Part shown: positions 3,950 to 17,286 of the stretch, one piece after another
Numbering within the stretch: position 1 is the stretch's first letter
Layout of the letters: each line of letters starts with the position of its first letter
NCBI GenBank assembly: GCA_019314005.1
Contig: JAFDAE010000001.1
Span: forward strand, 1 to 45,102
Length of the DNA: 45,102 nt
Direction: 5' to 3'
Source of the DNA: Deltaproteobacteria bacterium
Lineage (GTDB): Bacteria > Desulfobacterota > Desulfobacteria > C00003060 > C00003106
The notes under the pieces: model-generated
The model's database searches: none
Told to the model about the DNA's origin: nothing
The model's input: the letters and a program-made list of their open reading frames with translations, nothing else
Position numbers and translations under genes: made by a program

Positions 3950-4115
3950 CGATACATTGATTTTGTTGGTTACTCCCGGTAAACCCTCAGGAGGCTTAAA
4001 ACAAAAAGCGGTCATTACATCTTGAGCTCCGAATCTAAAGACTAAGATATGTATAACCGCAACTATACTCTTTTATATATGGACATTCCTACACCATGCC
4101 TGTCATTTTCTTATA

Positions 4116-4175
4116 TCCGGTTTACCCCCTCAATAGTATCCATAAGGTGACATATGTCTGACTAAACATGGTTAT
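4116..4175 (+). other. attI: Second attI-like recombination site (left array), no adjacent integrase
   Basis: A 59-bp sequence matches the site upstream of the integron integrase (12676-12734) with only two mismatches (4131 and 4141). Identity stops within the core: CTAAACATGGTTA is shared and then the sequences diverge, as expected when different cassettes have been joined at G/TT (G at 4171). The arrangement CTAAAC-ATG-GTTA resembles the simple site of class 1 attI. It contains the palindrome GACATATGTC (4149-4158). The 166 bases between 3950 and 4115 hold no gene or other signal I can support. Confidence 0.8.
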
Positions 4176-4341: not shown

Positions 4342-4440
4342 GTGCATAACCAGGCGTTTCAAAGGAAATTTACCACGGATTCCGCCCGACTATTTGAAGT
4401 TTTGTCCAGTGGCAAATTCCACTGAACTTGAATGTTAGTT
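4342..4440 (+). repeat. attC: attC site L1
   Basis: R'' is GTGCATAAC (4342-4350), exactly complementary to the cassette start GTTATGCAC (4171-4179). R' is GTTAGTT at 4434. Inner arms GTTTCAAAGGAAATTT (left) and AAATTCCACTGAAC (right) pair imperfectly, with two extra bases on the left arm, as in canonical attC L''/L'. Confidence 0.75.
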
Positions 4441-5286
4441 TGTTGCCGCCATCAAATCAAATCTGTCGAACTCGTCGCCATTACCATTGCAGCCCCATTG
4501 AGACGTAGTGTGCTTGTTCTTTCTAATGCCATCCAATAGTTGATTCTCTGCAATCCGAAGAAACCAGTTTTCTATATGTGTGTCTGCCCTAAGTAATCCG
4601 CGCTTAATGTCTCTCATGCCTTCGCTGAAAGCAACATGCACTGCTTCGTTTACATTGTCTCCGCAGACCCCTTTGAATTTACTCTGTAGTATTTTCCTCA
4701 TTTTGTCAGTCTTTTGCATTACGAAACTGTCGAGGGCCATCTGGTTGCCATCAATAAAGGCCAAAACCTTTTTCCCTAATTCAGAATGAACCGACTTTCT
4801 AAATTGAATCAACCCGTCATTATCTACAGGCGGGTTTTCCCACCACCATTCGATATTGTCAGCGCGGCAGTCTAGGGCATTCCCGTTTTTAAATGTTACA
4901 TGGGCGCTGTCAAACTTATTAGGGATAAATGCTTTGGCTACCTCCAAGTGAACATACAAGAATTTAACCCAGCCTCTTGTAGCCCTCCTATCCAAATAAA
5001 CACGCTTCTTAGGGGTGTTCATATGACTTCTTTTTTCGATCTGTGGTTTTATCAATACCCCTAGGGTTACAAGAGACTTAACACGCCCCATATTGCTAAC
5101 CTGATACCCCTCTGCCTCTTCAATGTCGGCCCACAACTCCCCAGCCAAGTCCTCAACTGGCATGGCCTCCGGCAATATGCGCCCCAATCTCCATATTTGC
5201 TGATAATGTTTATTGCAGAAGCCTTTAGATAGATGGGGCTTTTCGCAGTCTCTTATCATACATTGTGTGTATTTAATTCTTGCCAT
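4435..5286 (-). CDS. Cassette L2: zinc finger + NUMOD4/HNH-like + sigma-70 region 2-like fusion
   Basis: A 283-residue protein with three recognisable parts. Residues 9-27 hold C-x4-C-x9-C-x2-H within a sequence typical of homing-nuclease zinc motifs (HLSKGFCNKHYQQIWRLGR). Residues 50-75 (ELWADIEEAEGYQVSNMGRV) match NUMOD4, followed at 112-146 by an HNH-like segment (HLEVAKAF, HVTFKNGNALDCRADNIEW), where the catalytic histidines look degenerate. Residues about 181-258 resemble ECF sigma factor region 2, ending in IENWFLRIAENQLLDGIRKN, close to the WLxxIARNxxxDxxRRxKR pattern. No region 4 follows. GAGGAGAGGTGATTAA precedes the ATG. The stop TAA is formed by the R' core of the preceding attC. 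A DNA-binding regulator derived from a homing endonuclease is possible. Confidence 0.7.
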   Translation of the reverse strand: MARIKYTQCMIRDCEKPHLSKGFCNKHYQQIWRLGRILPEAMPVEDLAGELWADIEEAEGYQVSNMGRVKSLVTLGVLIKPQIEKRSHMNTPKKRVYLDRRATRGWVKFLYVHLEVAKAFIPNKFDSAHVTFKNGNALDCRADNIEWWWENPPVDNDGLIQFRKSVHSELGKKVLAFIDGNQMALDSFVMQKTDKMRKILQSKFKGVCGDNVNEAVHVAFSEGMRDIKRGLLRADTHIENWFLRIAENQLLDGIRKNKHTTSQWGCNGNGDEFDRFDLMAATN

Positions 5287-5314: not shown

Positions 5315-5391
5315 CAAACTAACAAAACGCTGCACACGACCGCTAACGCTCATTCCATTCGCTATCGCGACTCGTGAGCTTGGCGTTATGC
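5315..5391 (+). repeat. attC: attC site L2
   Basis: R'' CAAACTAAC (5315-5323) is exactly complementary to its cassette start GTTAGTTTG (4434). L'' GCTGCAC pairs with L' GTGAGC leaving one extrahelical G, and R' is GTTATGC (5385). This is a textbook attC layout of 77 bp. Confidence 0.85.
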
Positions 5392-5751
5392 CTGCTGCTG
5401 GCAATCTGAGCAGCCGTTGCATTTTTCACCGCCAGGGAATACCTTGTAGCCCGAACACCTTCTTTGCTCTTTTTCTGCCAAGTGTTGCGCCCGGGTCTTT
5501 CCGAAATGTTTTTCAGCGCATTTCTGGCAAAAATATACTCCGCAATAGAGGCACCTAAATGCCAACCAGAGAGGGAATTCTATTTCACAAGAACAATTTA
5601 CAGCTGAGGATTTCATAGCCTGCATGGTTTGCTTTCTCACAAACTCACGTTTCTCCAGGTCAACGTCAGGCATAACAAATTTATGCAACCGACCGCTACC
5701 CGTGGTGCTTAATTGATCTGCCTTGCTTCCTGTTTCCGTTTTCTTGCTCAT
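5386..5751 (-). CDS. Cassette L3: cysteine-rich zinc-binding protein
   Basis: A 121-residue protein of unknown function. The centre has NCSC, FRCLYCGVYFCQKCAEKHFG and a C-terminal CNGCSDC, suggesting two or more zinc knuckles. The start at 5751 follows a strong AAAGGAGACGT ribosome site and lies inside the variable loop of the attC; residues 18-27 (GSGRLHKFVM) are encoded by the attC L'' and R'' region. An alternative start is the ATG of MPDVDLEK at 5674. The stop codon TAA is the R' core of attC L2. The gene is antisense to its cassette but follows phage transcription. Confidence 0.7.
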   Translation of the reverse strand: MSKKTETGSKADQLSTTGSGRLHKFVMPDVDLEKREFVRKQTMQAMKSSAVNCSCEIEFPLWLAFRCLYCGVYFCQKCAEKHFGKTRAQHLAEKEQRRCSGYKVFPGGEKCNGCSDCQQQA

Positions 5752-5793
5752 ACGTCTCCTTTCTAAATGCGGCCGCTGATAATGCCGTTCGGC
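5667..5793 (+). repeat. attC: attC site L3
   Basis: R'' CAGGCATAAC (5667-5676) is complementary over 10 bp to the cassette start at 5385. Left arm TATGCAACCGACCGC pairs with right arm GCGGCCGCTGATA; R' is GTTCGGC (5787). The long loop carries the ribosome site and ATG of the L3 gene. Confidence 0.75.
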
Positions 5794-5794
5794 A

Positions 5795-6265
5795 TCAAAC
5801 CTTAGGATAAACCGAAATATCTATCACCTTGTAGAATCCATCAAGTTGTATATTTGCACCAACCCGCCCAAGGGGCTTATTCTCAATGCCCCCAACAAGC
5901 TTTCCATTTAAGCCATTTTTGAGGTGCAACAATAAGTCTATCGGGTCAACGGCCTTTTTTGTCCAGGGTGCCGCAATCACATCAAGGTCACGCTCCTTTG
6001 AACCATGCTCCCCAATGGCATAGCCAACCTCATACGCTAACTCACGGATAAGATCAATTGGTGGTAACTTTGGCTCCTCCCAACCTTCGCATGGCTCAAA
6101 TGTCGCTTCCCCACATTTCCAGCATTTAGCGCCTTTTCGGGGGGCCTTACATTGGGGGCAACGCCGAACCCCGTCATTCGAGAGGGCTTTGCTAACAGTG
6201 TTGTCTTGTTTACTTTGGTCGATCACAGCATGGTTTCTCAGGCTTATTTTCGTTGTCTCTTTCAT
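5795..6265 (-). CDS. Cassette L4: zinc-ribbon protein with DLDVIAAPW-type domain
   Basis: A 156-residue protein. Residues around 35-52 carry CPQCKAPRKGAKCWKCGE, a four-cysteine ribbon. The C-terminal 95 residues resemble a phage family recognised by HGSKERDLDVIAAPW and a closing KPLGRVGANIQL...VIDISVYPK pattern; its biochemical role is unknown, though the RDLDV spacing recalls nucleotidyltransferase-like folds. Start at the ATG 6265, with AGGG 8 bases upstream; a TTG two codons earlier is possible. The stop TGA follows directly after the R' core of attC L3. It is the last recognisable cassette of the left array. Confidence 0.68.
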   Translation of the reverse strand: MKETTKISLRNHAVIDQSKQDNTVSKALSNDGVRRCPQCKAPRKGAKCWKCGEATFEPCEGWEEPKLPPIDLIRELAYEVGYAIGEHGSKERDLDVIAAPWTKKAVDPIDLLLHLKNGLNGKLVGGIENKPLGRVGANIQLDGFYKVIDISVYPKV

Positions 6266-6293
6266 TTGCAAAACCCTAATTTAAACGTACTAA
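6163..6293 (+). repeat. attC: attC site L4 (degenerate, end of left array)
   Basis: R'' GCCGAAC (6163-6169) is complementary over 7 bp to the cassette start GTTCGGC (5787). AGGGCTTTGC on the left pairs 9 of 10 with GCAAAACCCT on the right. The expected R' is replaced by GTACTAA (6287), so the terminal crossover point seems lost. Confidence 0.4.
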
Positions 6294-6491: not shown

Positions 6492-6499
6492 AGACTCCT

Positions 6500-6820
6500 T
6501 TAATTAGCGGGGAAAAAAGAAACAAGAGGTTTATGGACTATCCTCCTGATCTGCCGGACGCTTAACTTTTCTTTAAATTCCGCCTCTACGATCTCAGCAA
6601 TTTCAGAATAAGTGTTTTTAATGAATAACTGTTTAATATATTGGTTTCTAAGGGTGATAAATATCTGAGTAGAGTGAGGCACCTTTACTTGCTCCCCGTA
6701 ATGTTCATTACATATTCTCTTGAGAACCATTGAACCTTTTGGAAATCCGAATATCTCATTCAAGAGAACTTCTATTTTCCCCATAAACCCATAAGTTTCT
6801 TCATTCAAATCACTAGACAT
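6500..6820 (-). CDS. Mor/C-like transcription regulator
   Basis: A 106-residue protein from the ATG at 6820, which is preceded by GGAGGAAAGGGAAG. The layout KVPHSTQIFITLRNQYIKQLF, then NTYSEIAEIVEAEFKEKLSVRQIRRIV, resembles the Mor transcription-activator family of Mu-like phages: a strand-forming segment followed by a helix-turn-helix ending in VRQIRRIV. It overlaps the recombinase stop by 8 bp, so the two are translationally coupled. It could activate phage late or recombinase genes. A longer frame reaching 6916 is an out-of-frame extension within the recombinase and is not used. Confidence 0.62.
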   Translation of the reverse strand: MSSDLNEETYGFMGKIEVLLNEIFGFPKGSMVLKRICNEHYGEQVKVPHSTQIFITLRNQYIKQLFIKNTYSEIAEIVEAEFKEKLSVRQIRRIVHKPLVSFFPAN

Positions 6821-7760
6821 CTTCCCTTTCCTCCAATTCTTTCCACCTTTTATCAGATATGGCCGTCTTCTTAAGGACCTTGTCGGATATGACGATATAA
6901 CCCTGTGTCGTTTCAACGCTGGAATGTCCCAGGAGCATAGATATCTCTATTAAACCATGATCAGCATCGTAGAGATCCGTAGCGAATGTAGCGCGCACTT
7001 TATGGACGAAAACCCGCTCATTTTTTATACCTACGGCCGCAGCGTATTTCTTTAGAATATTATTGTATGAAACTTTCGAGAGGTTTGACCCCACCTGAGG
7101 AGGGCGGAAAGATACAAACAAGGCTCTCTCTCCCGGGGCGGCATACTGCTCTCGTATAAAAAGCCAGTTCCGGAGATTGGAAGAGGCGCGGCGCCGTAAT
7201 CTGACAGTGCGCTCCTTTGCACCTTTTCCCTGGATATAAATATAGATATCGTTACCGGTGAAGCGAAGGTCATCGATAACCATCTCTCGGATCTCTTCCA
7301 CCCGGGGGCCACAACCGTAAAGAACGGTAAGTATGGCCAGATCACGGATCCCCATAGGAGAGGTCAGGTCAGGTGCGGTGAATATCGCCTTTAGTTGAGC
7401 TGTGCTGAACTTCTGAGGCATCACCTTCGCCACTTTCGGCGAAGGAATTCTGACGGCAGGATCCTCGTTCTTATCTATGGCACCGTCATAAGCAAGAAAT
7501 GCGAAAAATTTCTTAATGGCTGCCAGCTTCGAGGCTCGGGAGCTGTTCTTCATATTCCCCTGGTTATAAAAGAGGTCCTTTAGCCAGTCCTCGATATCGG
7601 CCTGAGATATAGTATCGGTTCCCCCCTCGACCCCCCTGGAGGCAATCCATTTTTCAAAGCGGGTTAAGGTGTAACAATACCTTTTAATCGTTCCATCTCT
7701 AAAGCCTAGAACAACCCTTAAGTGCTCTTGAAAACGCGGTAGACAGTCTGAAATAGTCAT
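6813..7760 (-). CDS. Tyrosine recombinase, XerC/D-like
   Basis: A 315-residue tyrosine recombinase. An N-terminal SAM-like core-binding domain (residues 1-95) is followed by the catalytic domain with Arg153 (GCGPRVEE), Lys179 (QGKGAKER), His253-x-x-Arg256 (HKVRATFA), His279 (LLGHSS) and the nucleophile Tyr288 (QGYIV). All catalytic residues are present. It lacks the IntI-specific insertion, so it is distinct from the recombinase at 11610-12674. It may be the phage integrase or a dimer-resolution enzyme for the circular genome. It faces the origin-like region on its 5' side. Confidence 0.88.
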   Translation of the reverse strand: MTISDCLPRFQEHLRVVLGFRDGTIKRYCYTLTRFEKWIASRGVEGGTDTISQADIEDWLKDLFYNQGNMKNSSRASKLAAIKKFFAFLAYDGAIDKNEDPAVRIPSPKVAKVMPQKFSTAQLKAIFTAPDLTSPMGIRDLAILTVLYGCGPRVEEIREMVIDDLRFTGNDIYIYIQGKGAKERTVRLRRRASSNLRNWLFIREQYAAPGERALFVSFRPPQVGSNLSKVSYNNILKKYAAAVGIKNERVFVHKVRATFATDLYDADHGLIEISMLLGHSSVETTQGYIVISDKVLKKTAISDKRWKELEEREDV

Positions 7761-8486: not shown

Positions 8487-11400
8487 TCACCAATCTATAG
8501 CCTTTATTTCCTTACTGAATCTCCAGTAATTGTCGTTGTTCTTGAGGAAGTAAGGCGCCAGCTTCTTATTCTTCCCTAACAGTAGCTCCCACCCTCCCTT
8601 TACCAGGATATCTTTATCGTTGCCTATCCTTGCACCCAACGCCGAAGCATTAGCAAAAGGGTTAGGGATATGCTGCCCTTTCAGGTATCTGGTCATAAGG
8701 GTATGCAGGTCCTTCGAGGAAACGATAAATTCGAAGCGCTGCACCCGGGTCATAAAGAGATCCTCGTCATCACCGTTATATTCATAAGGCTCGGTAAGAT
8801 AGAAACTTTCAATATATTGAATATCTTCGTAGATTTTAACCTTGGTGTCGTCATAATAATAAGGCTTTTTAAAATACCTGTGCTCCTCATACTTAATGTT
8901 CTGTCCCAGCTTCCGGATAGTAAAGCAGACCTCTTTCTGAAGGCCATCTATATGAGTCAATAGAGTATTGGAGGTGAGCGCCGTTTCCGCTGCTTGGTCG
9001 TCCTGATACTCTATCCACTTTTTAAGGATCATAGCCGCGTCTTTTTTTGCCGAATGCTCTTTGTTCACCGGTATGTGCTTAAGCAGTGCCTCGAGGATTA
9101 TCATCATAGTGCAGAGGTGCTCATTATTTCGCTCTTTATTATGCCCGGGAAAGTGAGTGTTGATCTCTTGCATCCAGAAGGTCCTCTCCTTCATCCTGGG
9201 AAGAACTTCACGGCCGATCATTTTAAGGATCGCTGAAATCATCATCGGCCTGTCCCGTAGGATATCCCCCAGACATTCGCTATGAACGTAGCCACCTTCC
9301 ATGCGGTACCTGCCCTCGCAGATTATTGGAAAGGTCCTATTTATCAGCTCCGGATATTTACCCGGGAAAGGCTCGATAGAGGTGATCATCCCCATGGAAT
9401 CCAGCTTCTGGTAGACAACGTCCGTGTCGCTCCCAGCTGCAGCCTTTGGCGTCATAGCAGAGTTGGCCAGGAAGAGGAGAAAATCAACCACACCCTGATT
9501 AAGGTTTTGGTTCTCTATGTTGTCCAGGAAAATAATAGGGTTTCTCGTTGCGATCCTCTTTGCAGCCGCACCCGTTCCCCTTCCTATAAAGGTCTCTCCA
9601 TAGATGAGCTGACTCCATCTTTCGGCAACCTTCGATTTTCCCACCTGGCTTGATCCGATGATCTGCACCAACCCCCTGTCTGTCTGGTAGTTTATAAGGA
9701 ACGTAGAGAGTACCCAGCAGGCTAGGAAGTACCTTTGAGCCGGCTCACAGGGCATAGGGTCCATTAAATGTTTTTTCAGCGCGCTAAAGCCTTCGGCTTC
9801 GCTGGTGTTGGGTTTATAAGCGAGTTCGCGAATCTGTGGTGAAGAGTTCAACAACACCGAATTTTCATTCGTGCCGTTGTCTATGGTGACCGGCTCTTCG
9901 CCGGCAGTTACTTTTATGATTTTGTGCATAGGAAGGGTCAGGTTGTAGTAGACAGTGGCCGTCTCCCTGCAGGTATATGTCCAGCTCATCATATCCACAG
10001 GTTCGCCCTTATCGATGCAAAAGGTTTTTAGGTAATACCATACCTGAGTACCCGGAGATTCGCATTTTCCAAGGTGCGTCAGGCGCAGCATTATGGCATT
10101 GAAAGGGTTGTTGTCGCCTATCTCGTAAATAACCCCGTGATAAAAAATCCACGCTTTAGAGTCTGACGTTTTAAAGAAACGTCCGGCGTTATTCTCGAAC
10201 CATTTATAAATATGATCGGCAACTGTTCTGGCTTTGTGATGTTTATAGTCCCTGAAACGCTCTTCCAATTCGCCGTGAAGGTCTGCACTACCCGCCTGCT
10301 CAAGAATACTCTCGACCCCTTTTATGGAAAGAGGTATAGCCTTGGCCAACACCTCCGTATAAACCTCACGCTCAGCATGGGAAGTCAAAGAGTTAATCCA
10401 TTGAGGGATTCGCCGCTCCTTCAAAACTACGATAGTATCCTTTGTGTCCTTAATCAATTTTAGAAGCTCAATCTCCCACTCCAGGGGCGAAAACGCCGCC
10501 TTCATCAGCTCCTTAATGGCCTTCCTGGCCGCTGCTTTATCCTTCTCCTTTAGTATTCCCTGGATAAAGTCGTCAGGGTCCTTCGCTTCTCCCGGGTGCA
10601 TAATAATCCGGACGTCTACGGAAGACTCTTCCAGACCTTTATAGAGAAGCCTTGTATGAGCTGGTCCTCCCTGTGACTTCTTAGGATCCTTGTCGGGGTC
10701 CTTATCAAACCAGAGGTAAACCGTCTTGCCGGCACAATGGTTTTTGACCTTCTTAACCTGGTCATTACCCGGTCCTCCGCAAGTGCCTACAACGTTCTTG
10801 AACCCGGCATCGATGAGGCTGGCTATGTCGTGCTGACCTTCAACTATGAAGAGGTCCCCATACGGCCCCAAGGCGGCGTGATTGATAAACCAGTCCTTCT
10901 TGATTCCTTTCATCTGCTGGGCGGTGAACTTCTTCTCCGGATCTTTCACGGTGAGGCAGATCACCTTGCCGGCATGATCGATGACAGGGAATACAGCCAT
11001 ATCTTTTTTCCAAAAGAAGTCCCTCGTCTGCTTTAAAGGTTCTCCTTTTGGATCTTTGTCTACGACCAGACCATGATTCACCAGCTCTGAAGTAGTGAGA
11101 CCTTCCTTCCTGAGAGCTTTACCAAGACCACCATCCGTCCACCCCATCTCCATGGTTTCCATTGTCTCATCAAAGTGGCCACGATCGGTAAGGAAGTACT
11201 TAATGGCCTTGTCGCTACTGCCGTCCGCCCTCACCCCTTTATAGTATTGGAGGGCAAGGCGCAGCGGGTTTTTTTTCTCGCTCTCGGCCTGTTCCTGGAT
11301 CTGCTTCACTGAACCAGATCCGGATGGAGGGGTGAGCGCGACATTCCCGATCTCCGCGCAGATCCTCAAAGCCTCGGCCTTGTCTACACCGTCACAGGTC

Positions 11401-11600
11401 ATAACCAGGTCGATGACAGAACCAGCCAAAGGGCAGGAAAAGCAATTAACAAGGTTGTCCCCCTCATCGATGCTGCAGCAGTCATGTCCGCCACAATTCG
11501 GACATTCATCGGCAAAACCCTTAACCACCTTTCTGCTATACCGGGCAAGTGCCTCGTTAATCGATACCGCCAGTTTTACCTTCTTAAAATCATCGCTCAT
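8487..11600 (-). CDS. Primase-helicase (zinc finger, TOPRIM, SF3-like ATPase)
   Basis: A 1037-residue replication protein. The N-terminus has a CHC2-type zinc motif (CPNC at 33-36, then CFSC at 53-56). A TOPRIM core follows around residues 250-310, with FIVEGQHDIASLIDAG and YLWFDKDPDKDP as the metal-binding acidic motifs. The C-terminal ATPase has Walker A GSSQVGKS near residue 650 and Walker B PIIFLDNIE near 690. This domain order is typical of phage and satellite primase-helicases that start replication at a nearby origin. The downstream side is the iteron region. It starts 10 bp after the integron integrase stop, so both can share a transcript. Confidence 0.88.
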   Translation of the reverse strand: MSDDFKKVKLAVSINEALARYSRKVVKGFADECPNCGGHDCCSIDEGDNLVNCFSCPLAGSVIDLVMTCDGVDKAEALRICAEIGNVALTPPSGSGSVKQIQEQAESEKKNPLRLALQYYKGVRADGSSDKAIKYFLTDRGHFDETMETMEMGWTDGGLGKALRKEGLTTSELVNHGLVVDKDPKGEPLKQTRDFFWKKDMAVFPVIDHAGKVICLTVKDPEKKFTAQQMKGIKKDWFINHAALGPYGDLFIVEGQHDIASLIDAGFKNVVGTCGGPGNDQVKKVKNHCAGKTVYLWFDKDPDKDPKKSQGGPAHTRLLYKGLEESSVDVRIIMHPGEAKDPDDFIQGILKEKDKAAARKAIKELMKAAFSPLEWEIELLKLIKDTKDTIVVLKERRIPQWINSLTSHAEREVYTEVLAKAIPLSIKGVESILEQAGSADLHGELEERFRDYKHHKARTVADHIYKWFENNAGRFFKTSDSKAWIFYHGVIYEIGDNNPFNAIMLRLTHLGKCESPGTQVWYYLKTFCIDKGEPVDMMSWTYTCRETATVYYNLTLPMHKIIKVTAGEEPVTIDNGTNENSVLLNSSPQIRELAYKPNTSEAEGFSALKKHLMDPMPCEPAQRYFLACWVLSTFLINYQTDRGLVQIIGSSQVGKSKVAERWSQLIYGETFIGRGTGAAAKRIATRNPIIFLDNIENQNLNQGVVDFLLFLANSAMTPKAAAGSDTDVVYQKLDSMGMITSIEPFPGKYPELINRTFPIICEGRYRMEGGYVHSECLGDILRDRPMMISAILKMIGREVLPRMKERTFWMQEINTHFPGHNKERNNEHLCTMMIILEALLKHIPVNKEHSAKKDAAMILKKWIEYQDDQAAETALTSNTLLTHIDGLQKEVCFTIRKLGQNIKYEEHRYFKKPYYYDDTKVKIYEDIQYIESFYLTEPYEYNGDDEDLFMTRVQRFEFIVSSKDLHTLMTRYLKGQHIPNPFANASALGARIGNDKDILVKGGWELLLGKNKKLAPYFLKNNDNYWRFSKEIKAIDW

Positions 11601-11609: not shown

Positions 11610-12674
11610 TTAATGTAAAATTTTTGGGCTTTGTATCTCTTCTATAACAGGACTTCCCGGCACCACCCTATCTATGGTATTAACTATTCCCGGCCTTTTC
11701 GGAGCCTCTTCTGTTAAATCATCATAAGGGCTGCGGACAGTGCATTGCTTCTGCATCACATGAGTATAAACCATTGTGGTGGATATGTCTTTATGTCCCA
11801 AAAGCTCCTGTATCGTTCGAATATCATAGCCAACCTCCAGCAGATGTGTCGCAAAGCTATGGCGAAAAATATGACAAGTCACCCTCTTGCGGACCCCCGA
11901 TTTCAATGCGGCACGCTTAACAGCTTTGGGAAGATTGTCCTCATGAATATGTGTCCTGATCATCTTGCCTTCTTTGGACTTGATGATATTCTTCGAAGGG
12001 AACACATATTGCCACATAAGCTCCCTGTCGGCATTCGGATATTTCCTGGGAAGGGCGTTCGGCATATCAACGCGCCCACACTCCTTTTTAAGATCTATAC
12101 TGTGCTGGCTTTCAACCTTATCGATCTGGGCCTTGAGAGAGGACACAAGCCGCTCGGGAAGCATAGTGATCCTGTCCTTACTTCCCTTTCCTTCACGTAC
12201 AATCACTTGGCCGCGAGCGAAATCAATATCCTTGACACGAAGGCGCAGGCACTCCTTAAGCCTGAGTCCGCAACCATATAAAACAGAGGCCATCAGGCCG
12301 TTAACGCCGCTCATTTCATTAAGAACAAGATTCACTTCATCCCTGGTAAGCACCACAGGCAACCTCTTCGGCTTCTTGGCCCTCACAGCATCGATCTCGC
12401 TATTTACTTCAAGGCCGAAGACTCGCTTATAGAGAAAAATAAGAGCGCTCAAAGCCTGGTTCTGGGTGGATGCTGAAATATTCCCAGTCTTTGCACGATA
12501 CGTCAAAAAGGCCTCGATCTTCTTTTCCGGAGAGATGTCAGGTCCATAACCATTAACCCTGAGAAAGTGGATATAAGCCCTTACATGACTGGCATACGCA
12601 TCAAAGGTCTTGATAGAGTAATGTTTCAAAAAAACCTTTTCCTTCAACTTTGCGATCGTCTCTTTCTCGTTCAT
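11610..12674 (-). CDS. intI: Integron integrase (IntI family)
   Basis: A 354-residue tyrosine recombinase of the integron-integrase clade. Catalytic residues: Arg138 (GCGLRLKE), Lys163/166 (GKGSKDR), His268 and Arg271 ([11 protein letters not shown]), His294 (LLGHKD) and Tyr303 (MVYTHV). The decisive mark is the extra IntI segment at residues 193-227, between the Lys and His-x-x-Arg motifs ([16 protein letters not shown] and WQYVFPS), absent from XerC/D and used by IntI to hold extrahelical attC bases. The tail VRSPYDDL also fits IntI. The ATG at 12674 follows GGGGG at 10 bases. The attI-like site lies directly upstream, with the array beyond it, the normal integron geometry. No damage is visible, so it is probably active. 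Confidence 0.93.
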
Positions 12675-12675
12675 G

Positions 12676-12737
12676 TCCGGTTTACCCCCTAAATAGTATC
12701 AATAAGGTGACATATGTCTGACTAAACATGGTTAGCA
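12676..12737 (+). other. attI: attI site of the integron
   Basis: Lies directly upstream of intI. The simple site CTAAAC-ATG-GTTAGC has inverted integrase boxes around the crossover G12731/TT, closely resembling class 1 attI. The same 59 bp recurs at 4116-4174 with two differences. The palindrome GACATATGTC (12709-12718) lies about 35 bp upstream of the intI start codon and could be an operator. Confidence 0.82.
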
Positions 12738-12762
12738 CTCTAAACACTTAAAGGAGAATTAA

Positions 12763-13107
12763 ATGGACAACATAATAAAATTCCCCACAAAGTTAGTTCG
12801 CAACAAAATAGCTTTTGAAGAGGCGTTAAAAAAAGAAATGTCACATGTCGCAATGGATGCAGCCTTAAAAGATGAATTAACGCAGCGAATGACAGCCATT
12901 TGGGAAAAGTATCAATTCGAATATCAGCTGCAATATACATTACCATTGCCCTCTTCCATGACACAAGTTGAAATTGACAATATTCGTTCATCGATCACGA
13001 AATCTATCCAGGGGTTTCATGATGGTTTCTACGGTTTTTTGGATACCCTTCTCACCGAAAGGATTGCCGCTGATCGTAAGCTTTTCTTTATGGAGCACAA
13101 TCTTTGA
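12763..13107 (+). CDS. Cassette R1: hypothetical protein, only plus-strand gene
   Basis: A 114-residue protein beginning MDNIIKFPTKLVRNK, without a recognised family. It is mostly helical and charged, with a polar linker (YTLPLPSSMTQ). AAAGGAGAATTAA precedes the ATG, so it has its own ribosome site, and it is the first cassette after attI with its attC at the 3' end: the canonical cassette orientation. It opposes phage transcription, so it would need a promoter in attI or intI. An overlapping minus-strand frame (12988-13227) also has a ribosome site inside the attC loop but is less convincing. Confidence 0.7.
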   Translation: MDNIIKFPTKLVRNKIAFEEALKKEMSHVAMDAALKDELTQRMTAIWEKYQFEYQLQYTLPLPSSMTQVEIDNIRSSITKSIQGFHDGFYGFLDTLLTERIAADRKLFFMEHNL

Positions 13108-13156
13108 TTCCTTGGCTTTATTTAATGAAATATCCGGCGTTCTAACGGCAGTCATT

Positions 13157-13284
13157 GTGCTAACCAAACGCTGCACCCGACCGCTAATAGTGGTTTTGAT
13201 TTGAGTTAATCTGCTTTTAAAGTTATTCATATTGTTCTCCATGTCACTAGCGCATTTCGCGGCCGGTGACCTCAATCGTTATAT
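13157..13284 (+). repeat. attC: attC site R1
   Basis: R'' GTGCTAAC (13157-13164) is complementary to the cassette start GTTAGCAC (12731). L'' GCTGCACCCGACCGC pairs partly with the GCGGCCGGTGA arm; R' is GTTATAT (13278). Confidence 0.75.
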
Positions 13285-13545
13285 TTCTAAGCGGTTAAAT
13301 TCACCTTCATACCGGTAAAACTCATCGCTGCCTGGGAAGCCGTATGCGGCACCATCAAAAATGTAGATTCCGGCATCTGCCGGGACTTTCGATCCCTCAG
13401 CAAAGAAGTCATCAAGACATGCGCCGTACTCATCAACATCGGTTTTTACTTCAGGGTTATCGGCAGGCTCCATTAATTCAAGCAAGCATCCGCCTCCGCC
13501 TAAGCCAATCGCTACTTTAAGTTTTACGCTAGTAATTCGTTCCAT
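13279..13545 (-). CDS. Cassette R2: hypothetical protein
   Basis: An 88-residue protein of unknown function with a glycine-rich GLGGGGC stretch near the start and an acidic character. The C-terminal pattern PADAGIYIFDGAAYG, then YRYEGEFNRL, resembles small hypothetical proteins of other phages. GAGGTG lies upstream of the ATG. The stop TAA is part of the R' core of attC R1, so the gene is antisense within its cassette and fills it from end to end. Confidence 0.68.
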   Translation of the reverse strand: MERITSVKLKVAIGLGGGGCLLELMEPADNPEVKTDVDEYGACLDDFFAEGSKVPADAGIYIFDGAAYGFPGSDEFYRYEGEFNRLEI

Positions 13546-13555
13546 TTTTCACCTC

Positions 13556-13652
13556 GAAATATAACAAAATTCTGCAAGGGACATGCCCTTACTGGGTTCA
13601 ATTTCTATTCGACACATTCCCAAAGGGCAAGCCCCTGAGAAAACCGTTATCT
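13556..13652 (+). repeat. attC: attC site R2
   Basis: R'' GAAATATAAC (13556-13565) is complementary over 10 bp to the cassette start at 13278. CAAGGGACATGCCCTT pairs with AAGGGCAAGCCCCTG, the left arm carrying the extra base; R' is GTTATCT (13646). Confidence 0.85.
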
Positions 13653-13967
13653 TGCAAGCCCTTTCAGGAAAGTCTTGATCTGTTTAATAACGTGATCAAA
13701 GTTTTCGTCATTAGTTTCTTGCCTTTTCTTAACATCCACGCCTGTCCTTTCGTTCACATGATTCACAATCGCCATCGCAAGACACTCTAGGTCGTAAGGG
13801 GCGATGCCACATAACCCCACGCTGCAAGCTACTTCGGCCACATCGTCTTTTCCAACGTAAGAAATGGCTTCATTTATTATGGCCCTATCAAATTGCTCAT
13901 GAGGGCAATCAACTCCGAAGCGATCTTTCACACGCTTTAAATGTTTTATTAAACTTTGTTTGTCCAT
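13647..13967 (-). CDS. Cassette R3: hypothetical protein
   Basis: A 106-residue, mainly helical protein of unknown family, with basic N-terminus (MDKQSLIKHLKRVKDRFG) and lysine-rich C-terminus. It begins inside the loop of its attC after a GGAGGAGATGGAGAA ribosome site, and ends with a TAA formed in the R' core of attC R2. The central part, encoding DDVAEVACSVGLCG, coincides with the attC left arm, so the cassette hairpin and the protein share sequence. Confidence 0.62.
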   Translation of the reverse strand: MDKQSLIKHLKRVKDRFGVDCPHEQFDRAIINEAISYVGKDDVAEVACSVGLCGIAPYDLECLAMAIVNHVNERTGVDVKKRQETNDENFDHVIKQIKTFLKGLAR

Positions 13968-14015
13968 TTCTCCATCTCCTCCAGCGTCCGAAGACCCTGA
14001 GCTTAATTGTTAGAG
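13808..14015 (+). repeat. attC: attC site R3 (long loop)
   Basis: R'' is CATAAC (13810-13815), one mismatch from the expected GATAAC. L'' GCTGCAAGCTACTTCGG matches the complement of CCGAAGACCCTGAGC except for two extra bases and two mismatches. R' is GTTAGAG (14009). The loop of about 145 bp is unusually long, so this site is less certain. Confidence 0.5.
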
Positions 14016-14204
14016 CTTTGGAGTAAACTCAAGGCATTCTTCCTTGTGCTCCACTTTTACAAGCTCAAAATATTCTTCTGGATAATCATCAACTAATTTT
14101 AAATAACTCATTCGAGCAGGCCTTTCGATGGATGATTCAAATATTACTTGCAGCCAGCTTTTATCAACACTTTTTATTTGTTGTCTTACTTCAAATTTAA
14201 ACAT
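14010..14204 (-). CDS. Cassette R4: conserved small phage-type protein
   Basis: A 64-residue protein starting MFKFEVRQQIKSVDKSW, similar in layout to small hypothetical proteins seen in phages and cassettes (FEVRQ..., then ARMSYLKLV, EYFELVKVEHKEECLEF). Predicted mixed strand and helix; function unknown. The ATG at 14204 is favoured over a GTG at 14210 because GAGGTG then acts as the ribosome site. The stop TAA is the R' core of attC R3. Confidence 0.7.
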   Translation of the reverse strand: MFKFEVRQQIKSVDKSWLQVIFESSIERPARMSYLKLVDDYPEEYFELVKVEHKEECLEFTPKL

Positions 14205-14210
14205 AATCAC

Positions 14211-14301
14211 CTCTAACCAATCGTTGAAAAAGGACTGGCTTATACGGGTTTCGTTTCAAGTAGGCTTGGTTGCGCCAGCCCTTTAACTCTAATCGTTATA
14301 T
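14211..14301 (+). repeat. attC: attC site R4
   Basis: R'' CTCTAAC (14211-14217) is complementary to the cassette start GTTAGAG (14009). GTTGAAAAAGGACTGGC pairs with GCCAGCCCTTTAAC leaving extra bases on the left; R' is GTTATAT (14295). Confidence 0.82.
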
Positions 14302-14535
14302 GTGCAGTCCTAAAATACAACCAAAGTCTTTCTCTGTAAAAAAGGCAATCAAACTGTAACCCTCCATTCCGGCTTCCACTTCTACTTCAACCTTTTCCCT
14401 CAACTTCTGGCATTCTCCCTCAGAAAACTTGTCTGTTGGTCTCTCCCAGTATTTACAAACATCACATATAACAATCGGCTGCACCCGACCGCTTTCAGCG
14501 GTCTCCTCCTGGTTTTCAACACTGTCTTTTGGCAT
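14296..14535 (-). CDS. Cassette R5: small putative zinc-binding protein
   Basis: A 79-residue protein. CDVCKYWERP, EGECQKL and DFGCILG supply four cysteines in a spacing seen in small phage proteins that end in a DFGC motif; metal binding is likely but function is unknown. The start at 14535 follows AAAGGAGAGGAAGCT within the attC loop, and the segment ESGRVQP is encoded by the attC L'' arm. The stop TAA is the R' core of attC R4. A longer frame to 14607 reaches into the next cassette and is rejected. Confidence 0.72.
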   Translation of the reverse strand: MPKDSVENQEETAESGRVQPIVICDVCKYWERPTDKFSEGECQKLREKVEVEVEAGMEGYSLIAFFTEKDFGCILGLHI

Positions 14536-14588
14536 AGCTTCCTCTCCTTTCAATCTTGGGTTCGCGGCAAGTGAGCCAAGCGTTCTAA
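14463..14588 (+). repeat. attC: attC site R5
   Basis: R'' CACATATAAC (14463-14472) is complementary over 10 bp to the cassette start at 14295. GCTGCACCCGACCGC pairs with the GCGGCAAGTGAGC arm with an extra G; R' is GTTCTAA (14582). The loop carries the R5 ribosome site and start codon. Confidence 0.85.
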
Positions 14589-14791
14589 GGCTTCCCAGCC
14601 ACACCACAATAGCCTTTTCTTGGCATCCCTTTTGGCGTTCCTATTTCATCTCTCCACATCATGCAACTGGAGACTATGCAGCTTGCCGCCTCATAAGTAA
14701 TCTCTTGAGAGTTTTTCAGCGAAGCATTGGAGCCTTCTATTTTCAATTCTGGGCACCACTTCGTTTTTGCTTCTTCTTCTGTCCAATACAT
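14585..14791 (-). CDS. Cassette R6: conserved cysteine-containing phage protein
   Basis: A 68-residue protein beginning MYWTEEEAKTKWCPEL and ending GYCGVAGKP, with CIVSSCMMWRDE between. This order (KWCP, CxxxxCMxWR, GYCGxAG) is shared by a small protein family common in phages of Gram-negative bacteria; its role is unknown, and the cysteines suggest metal binding. AAGGAGGAAATAAA precedes the ATG. The stop TAG lies in the R' core of attC R5. Confidence 0.78.
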   Translation of the reverse strand: MYWTEEEAKTKWCPELKIEGSNASLKNSQEITYEAASCIVSSCMMWRDEIGTPKGMPRKGYCGVAGKP

Positions 14792-14814
14792 TTTATTTCC
14801 TCCTTAATAGGCCC

Positions 14815-14907
14815 GCCTTAGAACCAGCGGGTCAACCAGACACCTAACGGTGTCTTTGAGTTTCATAGTGGGCTTGGTTTAGGTGCTTGTTACCCTTTTA
14901 GTTATAT
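14815..14907 (+). repeat. attC: attC site R6
   Basis: R'' GCCTTAGAAC (14815-14824) is complementary over 10 bp to the cassette start at 14582. GGTCAACCAGACACCT pairs with AGGTGCTTGTTACCC; R' is GTTATAT (14901). The body is nearly identical to attC R8 and R10, including the internal hairpin ACACC-TAAC-GGTGT. Confidence 0.88.
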
Positions 14908-15075
14908 TTCTCTATAAAGAATGTCATACATCCAAAAACAGCATATTAAAAATTCTATGTCGTGCCTATTTATCAAGCTTATACTTCCAGCGAGACAAAC
15001 GCACATAGTAATATATATCAGCCCAGTTGCCCTTCTCTCTTTAAGGTCAGATATGCTTGCGTCTTTAGCTTTCAT
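14902..15075 (-). CDS. Cassette R7: small membrane protein
   Basis: A 57-residue protein: a charged N-terminus (MKAKDASISDLKERRATG) followed by a hydrophobic span (LIYITMCVCLAGSISLI) and a second apolar stretch (EFLICCFWMYDILY). GAGGTGAAAG precedes the ATG at 15075, and the stop TAA is the R' core of attC R6, exactly as in neighbouring cassettes. It is probably a one- or two-span inner-membrane protein, as found in many cassettes. Function unknown. Confidence 0.65.
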   Translation of the reverse strand: MKAKDASISDLKERRATGLIYITMCVCLAGSISLINRHDIEFLICCFWMYDILYREI

Positions 15076-15100
15076 CTTTCACCTCATAAATAAAGTTTTA

Positions 15101-15233
15101 AAATATAACAAGTCACTGCAAAAGGACTTGCTGTTAGCGGTTTTGAATCGAACTGTCCGCGCTTAAACCAATTTTCCCACATGGGAAATATGGTCGGCTT
15201 TAATCCGCAAGCCCTTGAGTTCTAGCGTTCTAA
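15101..15233 (+). repeat. attC: attC site R7
   Basis: R'' AAATATAAC (15101-15109) is complementary to the cassette start at 14901. ACTGCAAAAGGACTTGC pairs with GCAAGCCCTTGAGT with two extra bases; R' is GTTCTAA (15227). It shares its left half with attC R11. Confidence 0.86.
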
Positions 15234-15442
15234 GGCTTCTCTATCCTATTTGCAGAAACTCTCATCGCCGACATTATGCTATCTACATCACAACTCGAAA
15301 CATCCGCAGCGAATATTATTTCCATGCATATTTTAAAGTTATGTCCGGCTAAGGCGCATCTCTTTAATTTGATGTGAAATTCATCAAGCTCATAACGGTC
15401 GTTTGCGCTCAATATTACGTCTAATTCTTTTAATGTCTCCAT
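15230..15442 (-). CDS. Cassette R8: hypothetical protein
   Basis: A 70-residue helical protein (METLKELDVILSANDRYEL at the start; CDVDSIMSAMRVSANRI near the end) with no recognised family. GAGGAGATGAT lies before the ATG. The stop TAG is in the R' core of attC R7. It shares its start-of-cassette sequence (GTTCTAAGGCTTC) with cassette R6, so the two share the same end type although their proteins are unrelated. Confidence 0.65.
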   Translation of the reverse strand: METLKELDVILSANDRYELDEFHIKLKRCALAGHNFKICMEIIFAADVSSCDVDSIMSAMRVSANRIEKP

Positions 15443-15462
15443 ATCATCTCCTCAATAAGCCC

Positions 15463-15555
15463 GCCTTAGAACCAGCGGGTCAACCAGACACCTAACGGTG
15501 TCTTTGAATTTCATAGTAGGCTTGGTTCAGGTGCTTGTTACCCTTTTCGTTATAC
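15463..15555 (+). repeat. attC: attC site R8
   Basis: R'' GCCTTAGAAC (15463-15472) is complementary over 10 bp to the cassette start at 15227; R' is GTTATAC (15549). It differs from attC R6 at only a few positions. Confidence 0.88.
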
Positions 15556-15556
15556 A

Positions 15557-15763
15557 TTAATCGTGATAACCATAAGGCTTTCCACAATTAATGCAAAATT
15601 CACTATCTGTTCCGTCAATAATTTCTCTATATCCTTTACCCTTGAAATGGAAACAAATTCCAACTTTCCATAGGTGATAATAATGTTTTACTTTGTAGTA
15701 ATATTTGGGGCCGTAATGACCTAAATAAATTCCCAACAAAATGTATAACAATTCATTCAACAT
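15557..15763 (-). CDS. Cassette R9: small membrane-anchored protein with CxxC
   Basis: A 68-residue protein with an apolar N-terminus (LLYILLGIYLGHYG), a tyrosine-rich basic middle and a C-terminal FCINCGKPYG knuckle resembling a half zinc ribbon. Its ATG lies within the attC loop after AAGGAGGAACGACTG. The stop TAA lies 8 bp beyond the R' core. Membrane attachment is inferred from composition; function unknown. Confidence 0.65.
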   Translation of the reverse strand: MLNELLYILLGIYLGHYGPKYYYKVKHYYHLWKVGICFHFKGKGYREIIDGTDSEFCINCGKPYGYHD

Positions 15764-15816
15764 CAGTCGTTCCTCCTTTGGACGGCTGCGCCGCCAGTTA
15801 ATTCAAGTCGTTATGT
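15740..15816 (+). repeat. attC: attC site R9
   Basis: R'' AATGTATAAC (15740-15749) is complementary over 10 bp to the cassette start at 15549. ATTCAAC pairs with GTTAAT leaving one extra C; R' is GTTATGT (15810). The loop contains a GGCTGCGCCGCC hairpin and the R9 ribosome site. Confidence 0.83.
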
Positions 15817-15827
15817 TTACTTTCCTC

Positions 15828-16004
15828 TCAATAGAACCATCCACTATAAGGAACTTCGTAAGGTTCTTTGCAAGGTTCTTCTCGTTTCGGTAGTGATTCC
15901 CTATCCATTTCCTTGAGCGGCTGGCTGCATATATCGTGATGAGGAATATTGTCTTCATCTGATTTATCACTTAGCGGGATCTTTATTTTTTTAGAAAAAC
16001 TCAT
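15828..16004 (-). CDS. Cassette R10: small hydrophilic hypothetical protein
   Basis: A 58-residue, highly charged protein starting MSFSKKIKIPLSDKSDEDN and ending EVPYSGWFY. No family recognised and probably flexible. AAGGAG lies 9 bases before the ATG at 16004. It occupies the cassette between R' at 15810 and the following attC, antisense to the cassette direction like its neighbours. The regular boundaries and ribosome site support a real gene despite the small size. Confidence 0.58.
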   Translation of the reverse strand: MSFSKKIKIPLSDKSDEDNIPHHDICSQPLKEMDRESLPKREEPCKEPYEVPYSGWFY

Positions 16005-16030
16005 CCTTTTTTCTCCTTTCTTCCACTGGC

Positions 16031-16123
16031 AAACATAAACAGCGGGTCAACGCAGACACCTAACGGTGTCTTTGAGTTTCATAGGTAACTTGGTTCAGGT
16101 GCTGGGTACCCTTTTCGTTAAAC
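16031..16123 (+). repeat. attC: attC site R10
   Basis: The body matches attC R6 and R8, but R'' reads AAACATAAAC with one extra A relative to the expected complement of the cassette start (15810). R' is a perfect GTTRRRY (GTTAAAC, 16117). Confidence 0.78.
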
Positions 16124-16339
16124 CCATTTCTTTTGAAAGGTCTGAGTCCTGTAGTAAGCTTTATTTCCACCGTCATAAACGACCATGCCAGGCTGAAGCT
16201 TTTTATACGCCGTGAAATCTCTTGTGGCAGTCGCTGGGCCTATCCCAAAAAAGTCCATAATTGCGCCTCTATTTACATAGCCGTATTCACCCAAAAGAAA
16301 ATCAATCATTCTCAATCTCTGTTCTATTGCGTATTTCAT
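16118..16339 (-). CDS. Cassette R11: winged-helix DNA-binding protein
   Basis: A 73-residue protein with the layout of the N-terminal helix-turn-helix found in WYL-type regulators: RLRMIDFLLGEYGYVNRGAI, MDFFGIGPATATRDF as recognition region, then MVVYDGGNKAYYRTQTF as the wing. It lacks any further domain, so it may act as a small repressor or anti-repressor. The stop TAA is formed by the R' core of attC R10. No strong ribosome site is visible (GAGGTTCCC only). Confidence 0.68.
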   Translation of the reverse strand: MKYAIEQRLRMIDFLLGEYGYVNRGAIMDFFGIGPATATRDFTAYKKLQPGMVVYDGGNKAYYRTQTFQKKWV

Positions 16340-16351
16340 GGGAACCTCAAA

Positions 16352-16483
16352 GGGTTTAACAAGTTACTGCAAAAGGACTTGCTGTTACCGGTTTTAAATT
16401 TCAGTTATTCGATATTTTCGAATAACTCAGCTAGAGTCAAGGCGTTGCTCTTAATCCGCAAGCCCTTAACTCCCACATTATGG
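16352..16483 (+). repeat. attC: attC site R11 (last of array, degenerate R')
   Basis: R'' GGGTTTAAC (16352-16360) is complementary to the cassette start GTTAAACCC (16117). ACTGCAAAAGGACTTGC pairs with GCAAGCCCTTAACT. The R' core reads ATTATGG (16477) instead of GTT, so the outer end of the array looks locked. The loop has a 10-bp perfect hairpin, CAGTTATTCG side against CGAATAACTC. Confidence 0.78.
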
Positions 16484-17275
16484 TCTCTGGTATTCAACTT
16501 TCACCCCCAACCTCTCCGCCATCTCTTTCAGTTTCTTCTTTGAAATCGACTTGCCATTAATAACGTTCGACACGTCCCTCGGATTGAAATTATGAGACGC
16601 TGCAAAAGCCGCCTGACTTGCGCACCCTTTCATCTTTTCAGATATAGCGACGGCCACCATTTCAACCGTTTCAGAAAATACTGAAACATTCCCTTTACCC
16701 GTTTCAGTATTTTCTGAAACAAATCGGCGGCAGAATTTCACCGCTGAAATCTCTGTCAACATTACAACGAAAAAGACCGCCGACAGCATCACGGCTACGG
16801 CATAAAGCCTCCATGACGCTTCAGCCTTTTCGGGTGCCGATATTTCTTTCCTGTAGTTCTTACGAGCGGTATTGAGGAGGGCTTGTGTCGGTTCAACACG
16901 GTCGGCAGATCGCTTATATTTCTTACTGTTCTCCTCATGTTTTTTAAGAGAGGCCTCCAGCTGTGCCATCTCATCCAGGTACGATGCGGCCATAACTGAA
17001 GACACTTTAACTTCTCCGATCTTTTCGAAAACGGGTGTTGATATCTGGTACCACGGACCGGCAATAAGAAGCGTTGCGATAACAACACGAACCTTTGGCA
17101 GCTGGTTGGTATACCAGTTCCAAAGCATGGCTCCATGCAGCGCGATCGAGAAGGCAATCCCACTGTAATAATCACCGGTGAATTCCTGCCAGAAGGGAAT
17201 GCTGTGGATCTGCATCAATCCAGTCGAGAGGATGATCACAACTATGGCCATCTTTTTATCAAGTGTTTTGTTCAT
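16478..17275 (-). CDS. Polytopic membrane protein with C-terminal HTH-like domain
   Basis: A 265-residue protein with four apolar spans (AIVVIILSTGLMQIHSIPFW; YSGIAFSIALHGAMLWNWY; VRVVIATLLIAGPWY; LYAVAVMLSAVFFVVMLTEI), a charged coiled region between the third and fourth, and a C-terminal segment (SQAAFAASHNFNPRDVSNVI, ISKKKLKEMAERLGV) that looks like a lambda-repressor-type helix-turn-helix. The ATG at 17275 follows AAAGGAATTGAT; a longer start at 17305 overlaps the methylase. Its TAA stop lies exactly at the degenerate outer end of the array, so the array abuts this gene. A membrane-tethered regulator is possible. Confidence 0.65.
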   Translation of the reverse strand: MNKTLDKKMAIVVIILSTGLMQIHSIPFWQEFTGDYYSGIAFSIALHGAMLWNWYTNQLPKVRVVIATLLIAGPWYQISTPVFEKIGEVKVSSVMAASYLDEMAQLEASLKKHEENSKKYKRSADRVEPTQALLNTARKNYRKEISAPEKAEASWRLYAVAVMLSAVFFVVMLTEISAVKFCRRFVSENTETGKGNVSVFSETVEMVAVAISEKMKGCASQAAFAASHNFNPRDVSNVINGKSISKKKLKEMAERLGVKVEYQRP

Positions 17276-17286
17276 ATCAATTCCTT

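What the first reader, a model, noticed from the sequence alone, without database searches (positions are those of the whole stretch)
11610..16483. A complete integron inside a phage genome
An integrase with full catalytic set plus the IntI-only segment (residues 193-227), an adjacent attI-like site and eleven attC-bounded cassettes lie inside an otherwise ordinary tailed-phage genome, between early genes and the primase. Integrons are known mainly from bacterial chromosomes, plasmids and transposons; phage examples are rare to my knowledge. The phage could swap small accessory genes by site-specific recombination.
Basis: partly seen in the sequence, partly recalled or inferred. Interest (0 to 1): 0.97.

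Follow-up and report, generated by a model that had tools for sequence, protein, structure and literature searches.

The report
Phage integrons with reversed gene cassettes
A bacterial virus genome carries its own integron, a gene-swapping platform best known from bacteria, in which 14 of 15 cassette genes are predicted to run backwards relative to their recombination sites, in line with the virus's other genes; related viruses share the design, and it likely lets phages exchange small genes, some of them predicted counter-defence genes.

Summary
The window is a 45,102-base virus record with 57-base terminal repeats and capsid, portal and tape-measure genes. 11610-12674 is a true integron integrase (TIGR02249); beside it lie an attI-like site and eleven cassette segments, nine ending in attC-like sites with both arms. 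Phage integrons are published (Qi 2023, PMC9892861), so that alone is not new. New, as far as my searches reach: (1) IntI sits just upstream of the primase in colinear relatives, so it is resident, not chimeric; (2) attCs point the usual way, but 14 of 15 cassette genes here and 65 of 70 clear cases in viral upstream arrays are antisense to attC, against 2 of 20 in bacterial arrays; (3) two phages identical over 4,074 bases from the attI core differ in the cassettes beside it; (4) cassettes of related phages include DNA methylases and anti-restriction Lar. Recombination itself is untested; attC and gene calls rest on my own scripts.

The parts
11610..12674 (-). intI, integron integrase, 354 aa with a C-terminal extension of about 30 aa
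   Evidence: TIGR02249 397.3 bits; alignment; 2a3v 3.7e-78
12673..12734 (+). attI1, core at GGTTA
   Evidence: 62-base repeat, 59 of 62 identical to 4113-4174, identity ends at the core
4113..4174 (+). attI2, second copy heading a second array
12763..13107 (+). cassette 1 gene, the only one in the sense of attC
   Evidence: codon and RBS score 26.1 (+) vs 17.8 (-)
13158..13282 (+). attC1
   Evidence: R''/R' and arms by eye, not in the scan; profile prefers + but fits poorly both ways; shares left arm with 5319, 5672 and 14468; no fold signal
13279..13545 (-). cassette 2 gene
   Evidence: 25.3 vs -25.7
13559..13652 (+). attC2
   Evidence: fold z -3.5
13647..13967 (-). cassette 3 gene
   Evidence: 36.6 vs none; besides itself one relative, 61% over half its length
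13984..14013 (+). partial attC3 (right arm only)
   Evidence: by eye
14010..14210 (-). cassette 4 gene
   Evidence: 12.5 vs 0.1
14211..14301 (+). attC4
   Evidence: fold z -2.5
14296..14535 (-). cassette 5 gene, starts inside attC5
   Evidence: 26.6 vs none
14466..14588 (+). attC5
   Evidence: (score 8.2); no fold signal
14585..14791 (-). cassette 6 gene
   Evidence: 13.8 vs -18.0
14818..14907 (+). attC6
   Evidence: arm score 12.2, bulges in the left arm; base profile fits neither way and leans to - by 5.5
14902..15075 (-). cassette 7 gene
   Evidence: 11.1 vs 3.8
15103..15233 (+). attC7
   Evidence: fold z -2.1
15230..15442 (-). cassette 8 gene
   Evidence: 20.6 vs -12.9
15466..15555 (+). 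attC8, near-copy of attC6
   Evidence: base profile leans to - by 0.3; fold z -1.9
15557..15763 (-). cassette 9 gene
   Evidence: 9.2 vs -0.3
15781..15815 (+). partial attC9
   Evidence: by eye
15828..16004 (-). cassette 10 gene (prefers 15803-15958 on the same strand)
16034..16123 (+). attC10
   Evidence: base profile leans to - by 4.3
16118..16339 (-). cassette 11 gene
   Evidence: 24.3 vs -3.0
16355..16478 (+). attC11, terminal, degenerate R'
   Evidence: repeat with 15106; not in the scan; profile scored with an inner GTT; fold z -3.6
4342..4440 (+). array 2 attC
   Evidence: arms by eye; a shorter match; fold z -0.9
4435..5286 (-). array 2 cassette: HNH endonuclease with NUMOD4
5317..5391 (+). 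array 2 attC
   Evidence: R1 13.5 bits; fold z -0.7
5386..5751 (-). array 2 cassette gene, starts inside the next attC
5670..5796 (+). array 2 attC
   Evidence: no fold signal
5795..6271 (-). array 2 last gene; outer attC not found
6813..7760 (-). separate phage integrase (phrog_1)
8487..11600 (-). phage primase, directly downstream of intI
   Evidence: phrog_47

Best explanation
The window is a tailed-phage genome that carries its own integron: one IntI-family integrase gene, two near-identical attI-like sites and two arrays of cassettes bounded by attC-like sites, 14 of whose 15 genes are predicted to lie antisense to attC, and it likely works as a gene-swapping platform whose cassettes would be transcribed from the phage's own operon. 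Shown: the integrase family, the repeated attI-like site, the attC-like hairpins with their bulges on one side, and conservation of IntI beside the primase in related phages. Predicted: gene starts and strands. Inferred: IntI recombines attI with folded attC bottom strands as bacterial IntIs do; a new cassette enters at attI1 or attI2; because the cassette genes run with the phage genes and not away from attI, they need no integron promoter (Pc) and would be read as part of a phage transcript that runs on into intI and the primase. What is gained is likely rapid exchange of small genes; in related phages several of these are predicted to counter restriction (DNA methylases, Lar).
For: IntI. 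Two attIs; L031/L144 also has an exact 30-base second copy between phage integrase and TerS, the same place as attI2 here. attC direction: bulged bases in the left arm of the + strand at all 7 array sites found by the scan; base profile from 18 canonical attCs of L009 and L010 (18 of 18 right when left out) prefers + at 6 of 9 main-array sites, by 11 to 45 bits. Gene direction: 14 of 15 on -. Phage-wide: 65 of 70 clear genes antisense in 35 upstream viral arrays, against 2 of 20 in 9 bacterial arrays, Fisher p 1.5e-12 (genes counted as independent, which they are not quite). Resident in a phage lineage: IntI, primase, phage integrase, TerS, TerL, portal in one order in L020, L025, L031 and L148; TerL is named from phrog_2, matched by 2 of 4 members, not by the window's own. 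Turnover: L042 and L044 are identical over 4,074 of 4,074 bases from the attI core on and unlike just before it; L043/L045 similar at 96%. Cargo. Separate phage integrase here and within about 3 kb downstream of intI in L022, L029, L043, L044.
Against: No recombination was observed for this phage; its own cassettes are almost all without known relatives. attC calls rest on my own scan, not IntegronFinder; model R1 missed the main array. At 3 of 9 array sites (attC6, 8, 10) the base profile leans the other way, by 0.3 to 5.5 bits, fitting neither way; two of the six + calls are weak (13158 scores below zero both ways, 16355 was scored with an inner GTT). Fold signals are mixed. Gene direction rests on a codon-usage and RBS score. 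L010, the Vibrio-type integron, scored 2 sense and 2 antisense and was left out of both groups; with it the control would be 4 of 24. 5 of 70 viral genes go the other way (L031's is likely a wrong call), and cassette 1 here is in sense. Promoter-like sites are no more than chance (10 vs 12.5); terminator-like sites exceed it (13 vs 6.4; 9 of 13 on +).
Confidence: 0.78

Rival explanations
1. A piece of a bacterial chromosomal integron was captured by chance when a prophage excised, as described for Vibrio anguillarum phages p16 and p42, and is passive cargo.
For: That route is published (PMC9892861 section 3.1).
Against: IntI and the array have phage genes on both sides; relatives from three metagenomes keep IntI at the same place; cassette genes are reversed, unlike the bacterial arrays tested; a 15-member IntI group (P0001-P0015, 69-90% to this one; the other listed hits at most 58%) is set apart.
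Confidence: 0.1
2. attC direction is misread: the attCs lie on the - strand, the genes are in the normal sense, and only intI is inverted, as in Treponema integrons.
For: Three attC6-type sites lean to - by base profile; same-direction intI and cassettes is known from Treponema (passage in PMC3607928); some viral arrays of mine are of that kind (L008, L034).
Against: Bulges at 7 of 7 scanned sites and base profile at 6 of 9 agree on +; the attI core faces the same way; the profile called 18 of 18 known sites right and the survey put 18 of 20 bacterial genes in sense.
Confidence: 0.07
3. IntI is the phage's lysogeny integrase and the repeats are attachment sites.
For: Some phage records have IntI-like genes annotated just as integrase.
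Against: A separate phrog_1 integrase is present here (6813-7760) and downstream of intI in four other phages; many attC-like sites, not one attP.
Confidence: 0.02
4. A decayed integron: intact integrase gene, but cassettes no longer move and are kept as ordinary small phage genes.
For: Two partial attCs and a degenerate last R' box; array 2 has no outer attC that I could find; L140 keeps an array at site 2 without detectable IntI in its record.
Against: IntI is open and conserved; near-identical pairs in other IntI clades differ beside attI.
Confidence: 0.15

Closest known systems
Complete integrons and CALINs in phage genomes (Qi et al. 2023, PMC9892861)
   Same: IntI, attI and attC array inside phage genomes; prophage M16-3 also has two attI-headed arrays
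   Different: Theirs are captured chromosomal pieces, a class 1 mosaic, a cryptic prophage, or arrays without integrase; in the parts I read none is described as kept at one place in a phage lineage or with its genes turned against attC. M16-3's 14 small genes between repressor and intI all lie on the strand opposite to intI, as in bacteria
Bacterial sedentary chromosomal integron (Vibrio, Shewanella)
   Same: IntI family, attI next to the intI start, attC direction relative to intI
   Different: There cassette genes mostly run in the sense of attC, away from intI; here against attC, with intI and the phage genes
Treponema integrons (PMC3607928, passages)
   Same: intI and cassettes transcribed in the same direction
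   Different: Here intI and attC keep the usual relation and the genes are turned. Some other phages (L008 Rctr41k, L034) have attC downstream of intI and in its sense, nearer to the inverted-intI kind

Membership tests
Integron | Integrase of the IntI family with its additional domain | tested here: met
   TIGR02249 397 bits vs cut-off 265; invariant IntI stretch
Integron | attI site beside intI | tested here: met
   62-base repeat ending at a GTTA core beside the intI start, second copy at array 2; activity not tested
Integron | Array of attC sites in one direction | tested here: met
   Excess over shuffles and the rest of the genome at threshold 10; bulges on one side at 7 of 7 scanned sites; profile + at 6 of 9, leaning - at 3; R1 negative on the main array
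Integron | Site-specific cassette recombination | not testable with these tools
   Indirect only: cassettes beside the attI core differ in L042/L044 and L043/L045
Bacterial-type integron (genes in the sense of attC, read from Pc) | Cassette genes in the sense of attC | tested here: not met
   1 of 15 here; 5 of 70 in viral upstream arrays; 18 of 20 in bacterial arrays
CALIN | attC cluster without integrase | tested here: not met
   intI adjacent; L140 does look like a CALIN relative
Treponema-type integron | intI inverted relative to attI and attC | tested here: not met
   attC lie upstream of intI and are antisense to it

The most novel reading that the evidence does not exclude
Tailed phages have evolved their own class of integron: carried vertically beside replication or packaging genes, with cassettes whose genes are turned against attC so that phage transcription, not an integron promoter, expresses them, with attI copies seeding second arrays, and with a cassette pool rich in counter-defence genes. 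The integron would then be a phage weapon exchange as much as a bacterial one.
Probability: 0.6. Interest if true: 0.88.

Novelty: new variant of a known kind. Interest (0 to 1): 0.8.

Why it matters
Integrons are thought of as bacterial stockpiles of promoterless genes read from one promoter. A phage-resident form with reversed cassettes shows the same recombination parts fitted to phage transcription, would give phages a precise way to exchange small genes, and offers a route by which cassettes could pass between phages and bacteria. Because array content differs between phages that are identical from attI onward, cassette gain and loss in phages can be measured directly in metagenomes, and because cassettes of relatives include methylases and Lar, such arrays become a place to look for unknown counter-defence genes.

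Tried and rejected
Rfam: 0 matches above gathering score in the window, and no tRNA. Primase as a bait in viral contigs found nothing. The capsid protein found 29 relatives; none of these 29 loci holds an IntI match of 150 bits or more, though most are short pieces. The genome-contig scan with IntI gave 3 loci, none of the window's close IntI group, so the surroundings of P0002-P0015 (two on contigs of about 40 kb, one of these named Desulfobacteraceae MAG) stay unseen. R1 on 85 phage or viral loci found 28 hits, 27 of them on the strand opposite to intI, but it is too narrow for long-loop attCs. A first orientation count by ORF length alone was noisy (window 2 sense, 3 antisense) and was replaced by codon and RBS scoring (then with viral copies removed). 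In one search the upstream figures were 71 antisense and 20 sense in all; without L179, L181 (bacterial) and L010 (Vibrio) 69 and 6. Bacterial loci were not de-duplicated: L129 lies inside L181 but gave no clear gene. Chimerism was set aside because of colinear relatives, not by reads. A profile search of the TerL alignment against solved structures found nothing. Literature: nothing found on phage-resident or reversed-cassette integrons (open-licence PMC only; no preprints held), so absence in print is not proven.
Full report
What is there. The window is a whole IMG/VR record. Its first 57 bases recur at its end, the sign of a circular or complete assembly. It holds a major capsid protein (PF03864, 1.1e-115), portal, tape measure, primase and an ordinary phage integrase. 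Of 43 non-overlapping ORFs of 100 aa or more, 39 are on the - strand, so the genome is read mainly one way.

The integrase at 11610-12674(-) is a true IntI. It keeps the tyrosine-recombinase residues and the stretch that marks IntI. Its nearest solved relative is the Vibrio enzyme 2a3v. In a search of 5.8 billion proteins (8000 candidates scored, best 120 listed) fourteen hits besides itself are 69-90% identical, 12 of them also 354 aa long; the other listed hits are at most 58%. In a quick tree of 127 sequences these fifteen form one group (support 99), while IntIs of viral contigs fall into several groups, two of which, of 34 and 12 rows, hold viral contigs only. The sample was chosen by similarity to this IntI, so this is a lead on phage lineages, not a census.

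attI. A 62-base stretch directly beside the intI start is repeated at 4113-4174 with 59 identical bases, and identity ends at the core GGTTA, where the two arrays begin. The shared pattern is not expected by chance (0 in 100 shuffles). The copy heads a second array of three attC-like sites and about four cassettes, including an HNH endonuclease. attC left arms of the two arrays belong to one repeat family (5319, 5672, 13160, 14468), as if both draw on one pool.

Direction. In the canonical attCs of L009 the extra unpaired bases lie mostly in the left arm of the strand read as the gene. In the window they lie in the left arm of the + strand at all seven array sites that the scan found. A base profile made from 18 attCs of the Shewanella and Vibrio records L009 and L010 (all 18 right when left out in turn) prefers + at six of nine main-array sites, by 11 to 45 bits; two of these six are weak fits, and the three attC6-type sites fit neither way and lean to - by 0.3 to 5.5 bits. 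Taken together the direction is +, the usual one relative to attI and intI. The genes are not: 14 of 15 best-scoring cassette genes lie on the - strand, with the phage genes and intI; cassette 1 beside attI1 is the exception.

Is this general? IntI relatives are encoded by 240 of 277 pattern-matched stretches in IMG/VR; the best 80 were fetched. With one set of rules, 77 viral loci (82 before removal of IntI genes at least 97% identical; the window is one of them) gave 35 arrays upstream of intI with attC in the usual direction: 65 genes antisense to attC, 5 in sense, 8 unclear. 56 bacterial loci gave 9 such arrays (8 places): 18 in sense, 2 antisense, 3 unclear (Fisher p = 1.5e-12, genes taken as independent). 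The Vibrio-type record L010 scored 2 and 2 and was in neither group; L009 gave no scored array, but its 14 annotated small genes are all on the strand opposite to intI. Eleven other viral arrays, ten of them downstream of intI, have other layouts; over all viral arrays 75 of 83 clear genes run with intI, against 2 of 20 in bacteria. Several of these contigs are phages by their genes: terminase directly after intI in L040, primase after intI in L066 and after the array in L034, tail genes in L093 and L037, terminase and virion protein in L043. Not every contig was checked.

A resident of a phage lineage. L020, L025 and L031, from three metagenomes, share the order IntI, primase, phage integrase, TerS, TerL, portal with the window. 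TerL is named from phrog_2, which 2 of the 4 aligned proteins match (1.5e-23); the window's own does not, and TerS rests on order and a weak hit. A scan with the TerL alignment gave 41 viral contigs. IntI lies upstream of the primase, with gaps of about 40 to 900 bases, in L144 (the L031 contig), L157 (L020), L159 (L025), L148 (36% identical) and, as an edge fragment, L150. L136, L167 and L173 hold 2 kb or more upstream of the primase without it there. attC-like sites lie upstream of intI in L020, L031 and L148 and, one only, in L025. L144 has a second attI copy between phage integrase and TerS, with what looks like one cassette, the same place as the window's second array. L140 has an array there too, with genes in phage direction, but no IntI detected in its 42-kb record. 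Most other relatives show no attC excess there.

Does it move? L042 and L044 are identical over 4,074 of 4,074 bases from the attI core to the end of the held L042 sequence. Just before the core their cassettes differ: small genes in L042, a long ORF (8720-9862) that reads by eye like a cytosine methylase in L044, while farther cassettes are shared blocks of 90-99% in changed surroundings. L043 and L045 (96% identical downstream) also part at the attI core. This is what IntI-driven exchange would leave. It is natural variation in other phages, not an assay of this one.

Cargo. 63 cassette proteins were scanned: 13 from the window, 46 of the 70 listed, and 4 read by eye. Pfam names N6/N4 methylase in 3, C5 methylase in 2, Lar anti-restriction in 2, PAPS reductase in 2, and Dam, RtcB, MazG and QueC in 1 each, with others; PADLOC models for methyltransferases match up to 3 members. 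The window's own cassettes match nothing but the HNH/NUMOD4 gene; cassette 3 has one partial relative in the protein collection.

Known work. Qi et al. 2023 (PMC9892861, parts 1-4 read) found 3 complete integrons, 1 lone integrase and 17 CALINs in 10,705 phage genomes and showed that phage attCs are used by IntI1. So a phage integron is not new in itself. Their complete cases are captured chromosomal pieces, a class 1 mosaic and a cryptic prophage. In the listings and passages I saw, no paper describes phage lineages that keep an integron or arrays with genes turned against attC.

How it likely works (inference). IntI would join attI to a folded attC, as in bacteria. In bacteria the inserted gene points away from attI and is read from Pc. 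Here it points toward attI, so the phage's leftward transcript would read through the array into intI and the primase; cassettes would need no promoter, and intI would be made with them. Only cassettes with genes in this direction would pay, which could explain why reversed genes fill the phage pool. Terminator-like hairpins in the region sit mostly on the + strand (9 of 13), which would hinder - strand reading less; this is weak evidence.

Verdict. A real, conserved phage form of integron, not an artefact. The integron is known; its phage-resident, reversed-cassette, two-attI form is, as far as my searches reach, new. Recombination, expression and benefit remain to be tested.

Noticed in passing
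L008 (KX853513.1, Virus Rctr41k) 4680-10101: An apparent complete integron in a phage record annotated only as 'integrase-like protein': intI followed by an attC array downstream, genes in the sense of attC (inverted-intI layout).
   Followed up: partly
L140 6985-9245: A phage of the same backbone family with an array of several cassettes between phage integrase and TerS and no detectable IntI: a CALIN at the window's second-array site.
   Followed up: partly
L136 1403-2277: Three attC-like sites upstream of the primase, in the sense of the phage genes (opposite to the window's type), with only a partial IntI-like hit elsewhere in the record.
   Followed up: no
L018 5677-6599 and L080 13211-13345: Further second copies of the region upstream of intI (139 bases at 90%, 135 bases at 83%); in L018 with a second intI-like stretch. 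attI duplication may recur in phage integrons.
   Followed up: no
window 5386-5751, 12988-13230, 14296-14535: Three - strand ORFs start inside an attC loop and read through its left arm, giving related N-terminal parts (SGRL/SGRV); swapping cassettes would change protein N-termini.
   Followed up: no
window 16668-16720: A perfect 20-base inverted repeat (13-base gap) inside gene 16478-17305, next to the outer end of the array; role unknown.
   Followed up: no
window 14800-16122: Three long near-repeats (107 bases, 67-94%) are attCs with their flanks; they carry an identical 18-base hairpin that scores as terminator-like.
   Followed up: partly
window 3109-3561: Peptidase M15 gene (likely endolysin) beside attI2.
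   Followed up: no
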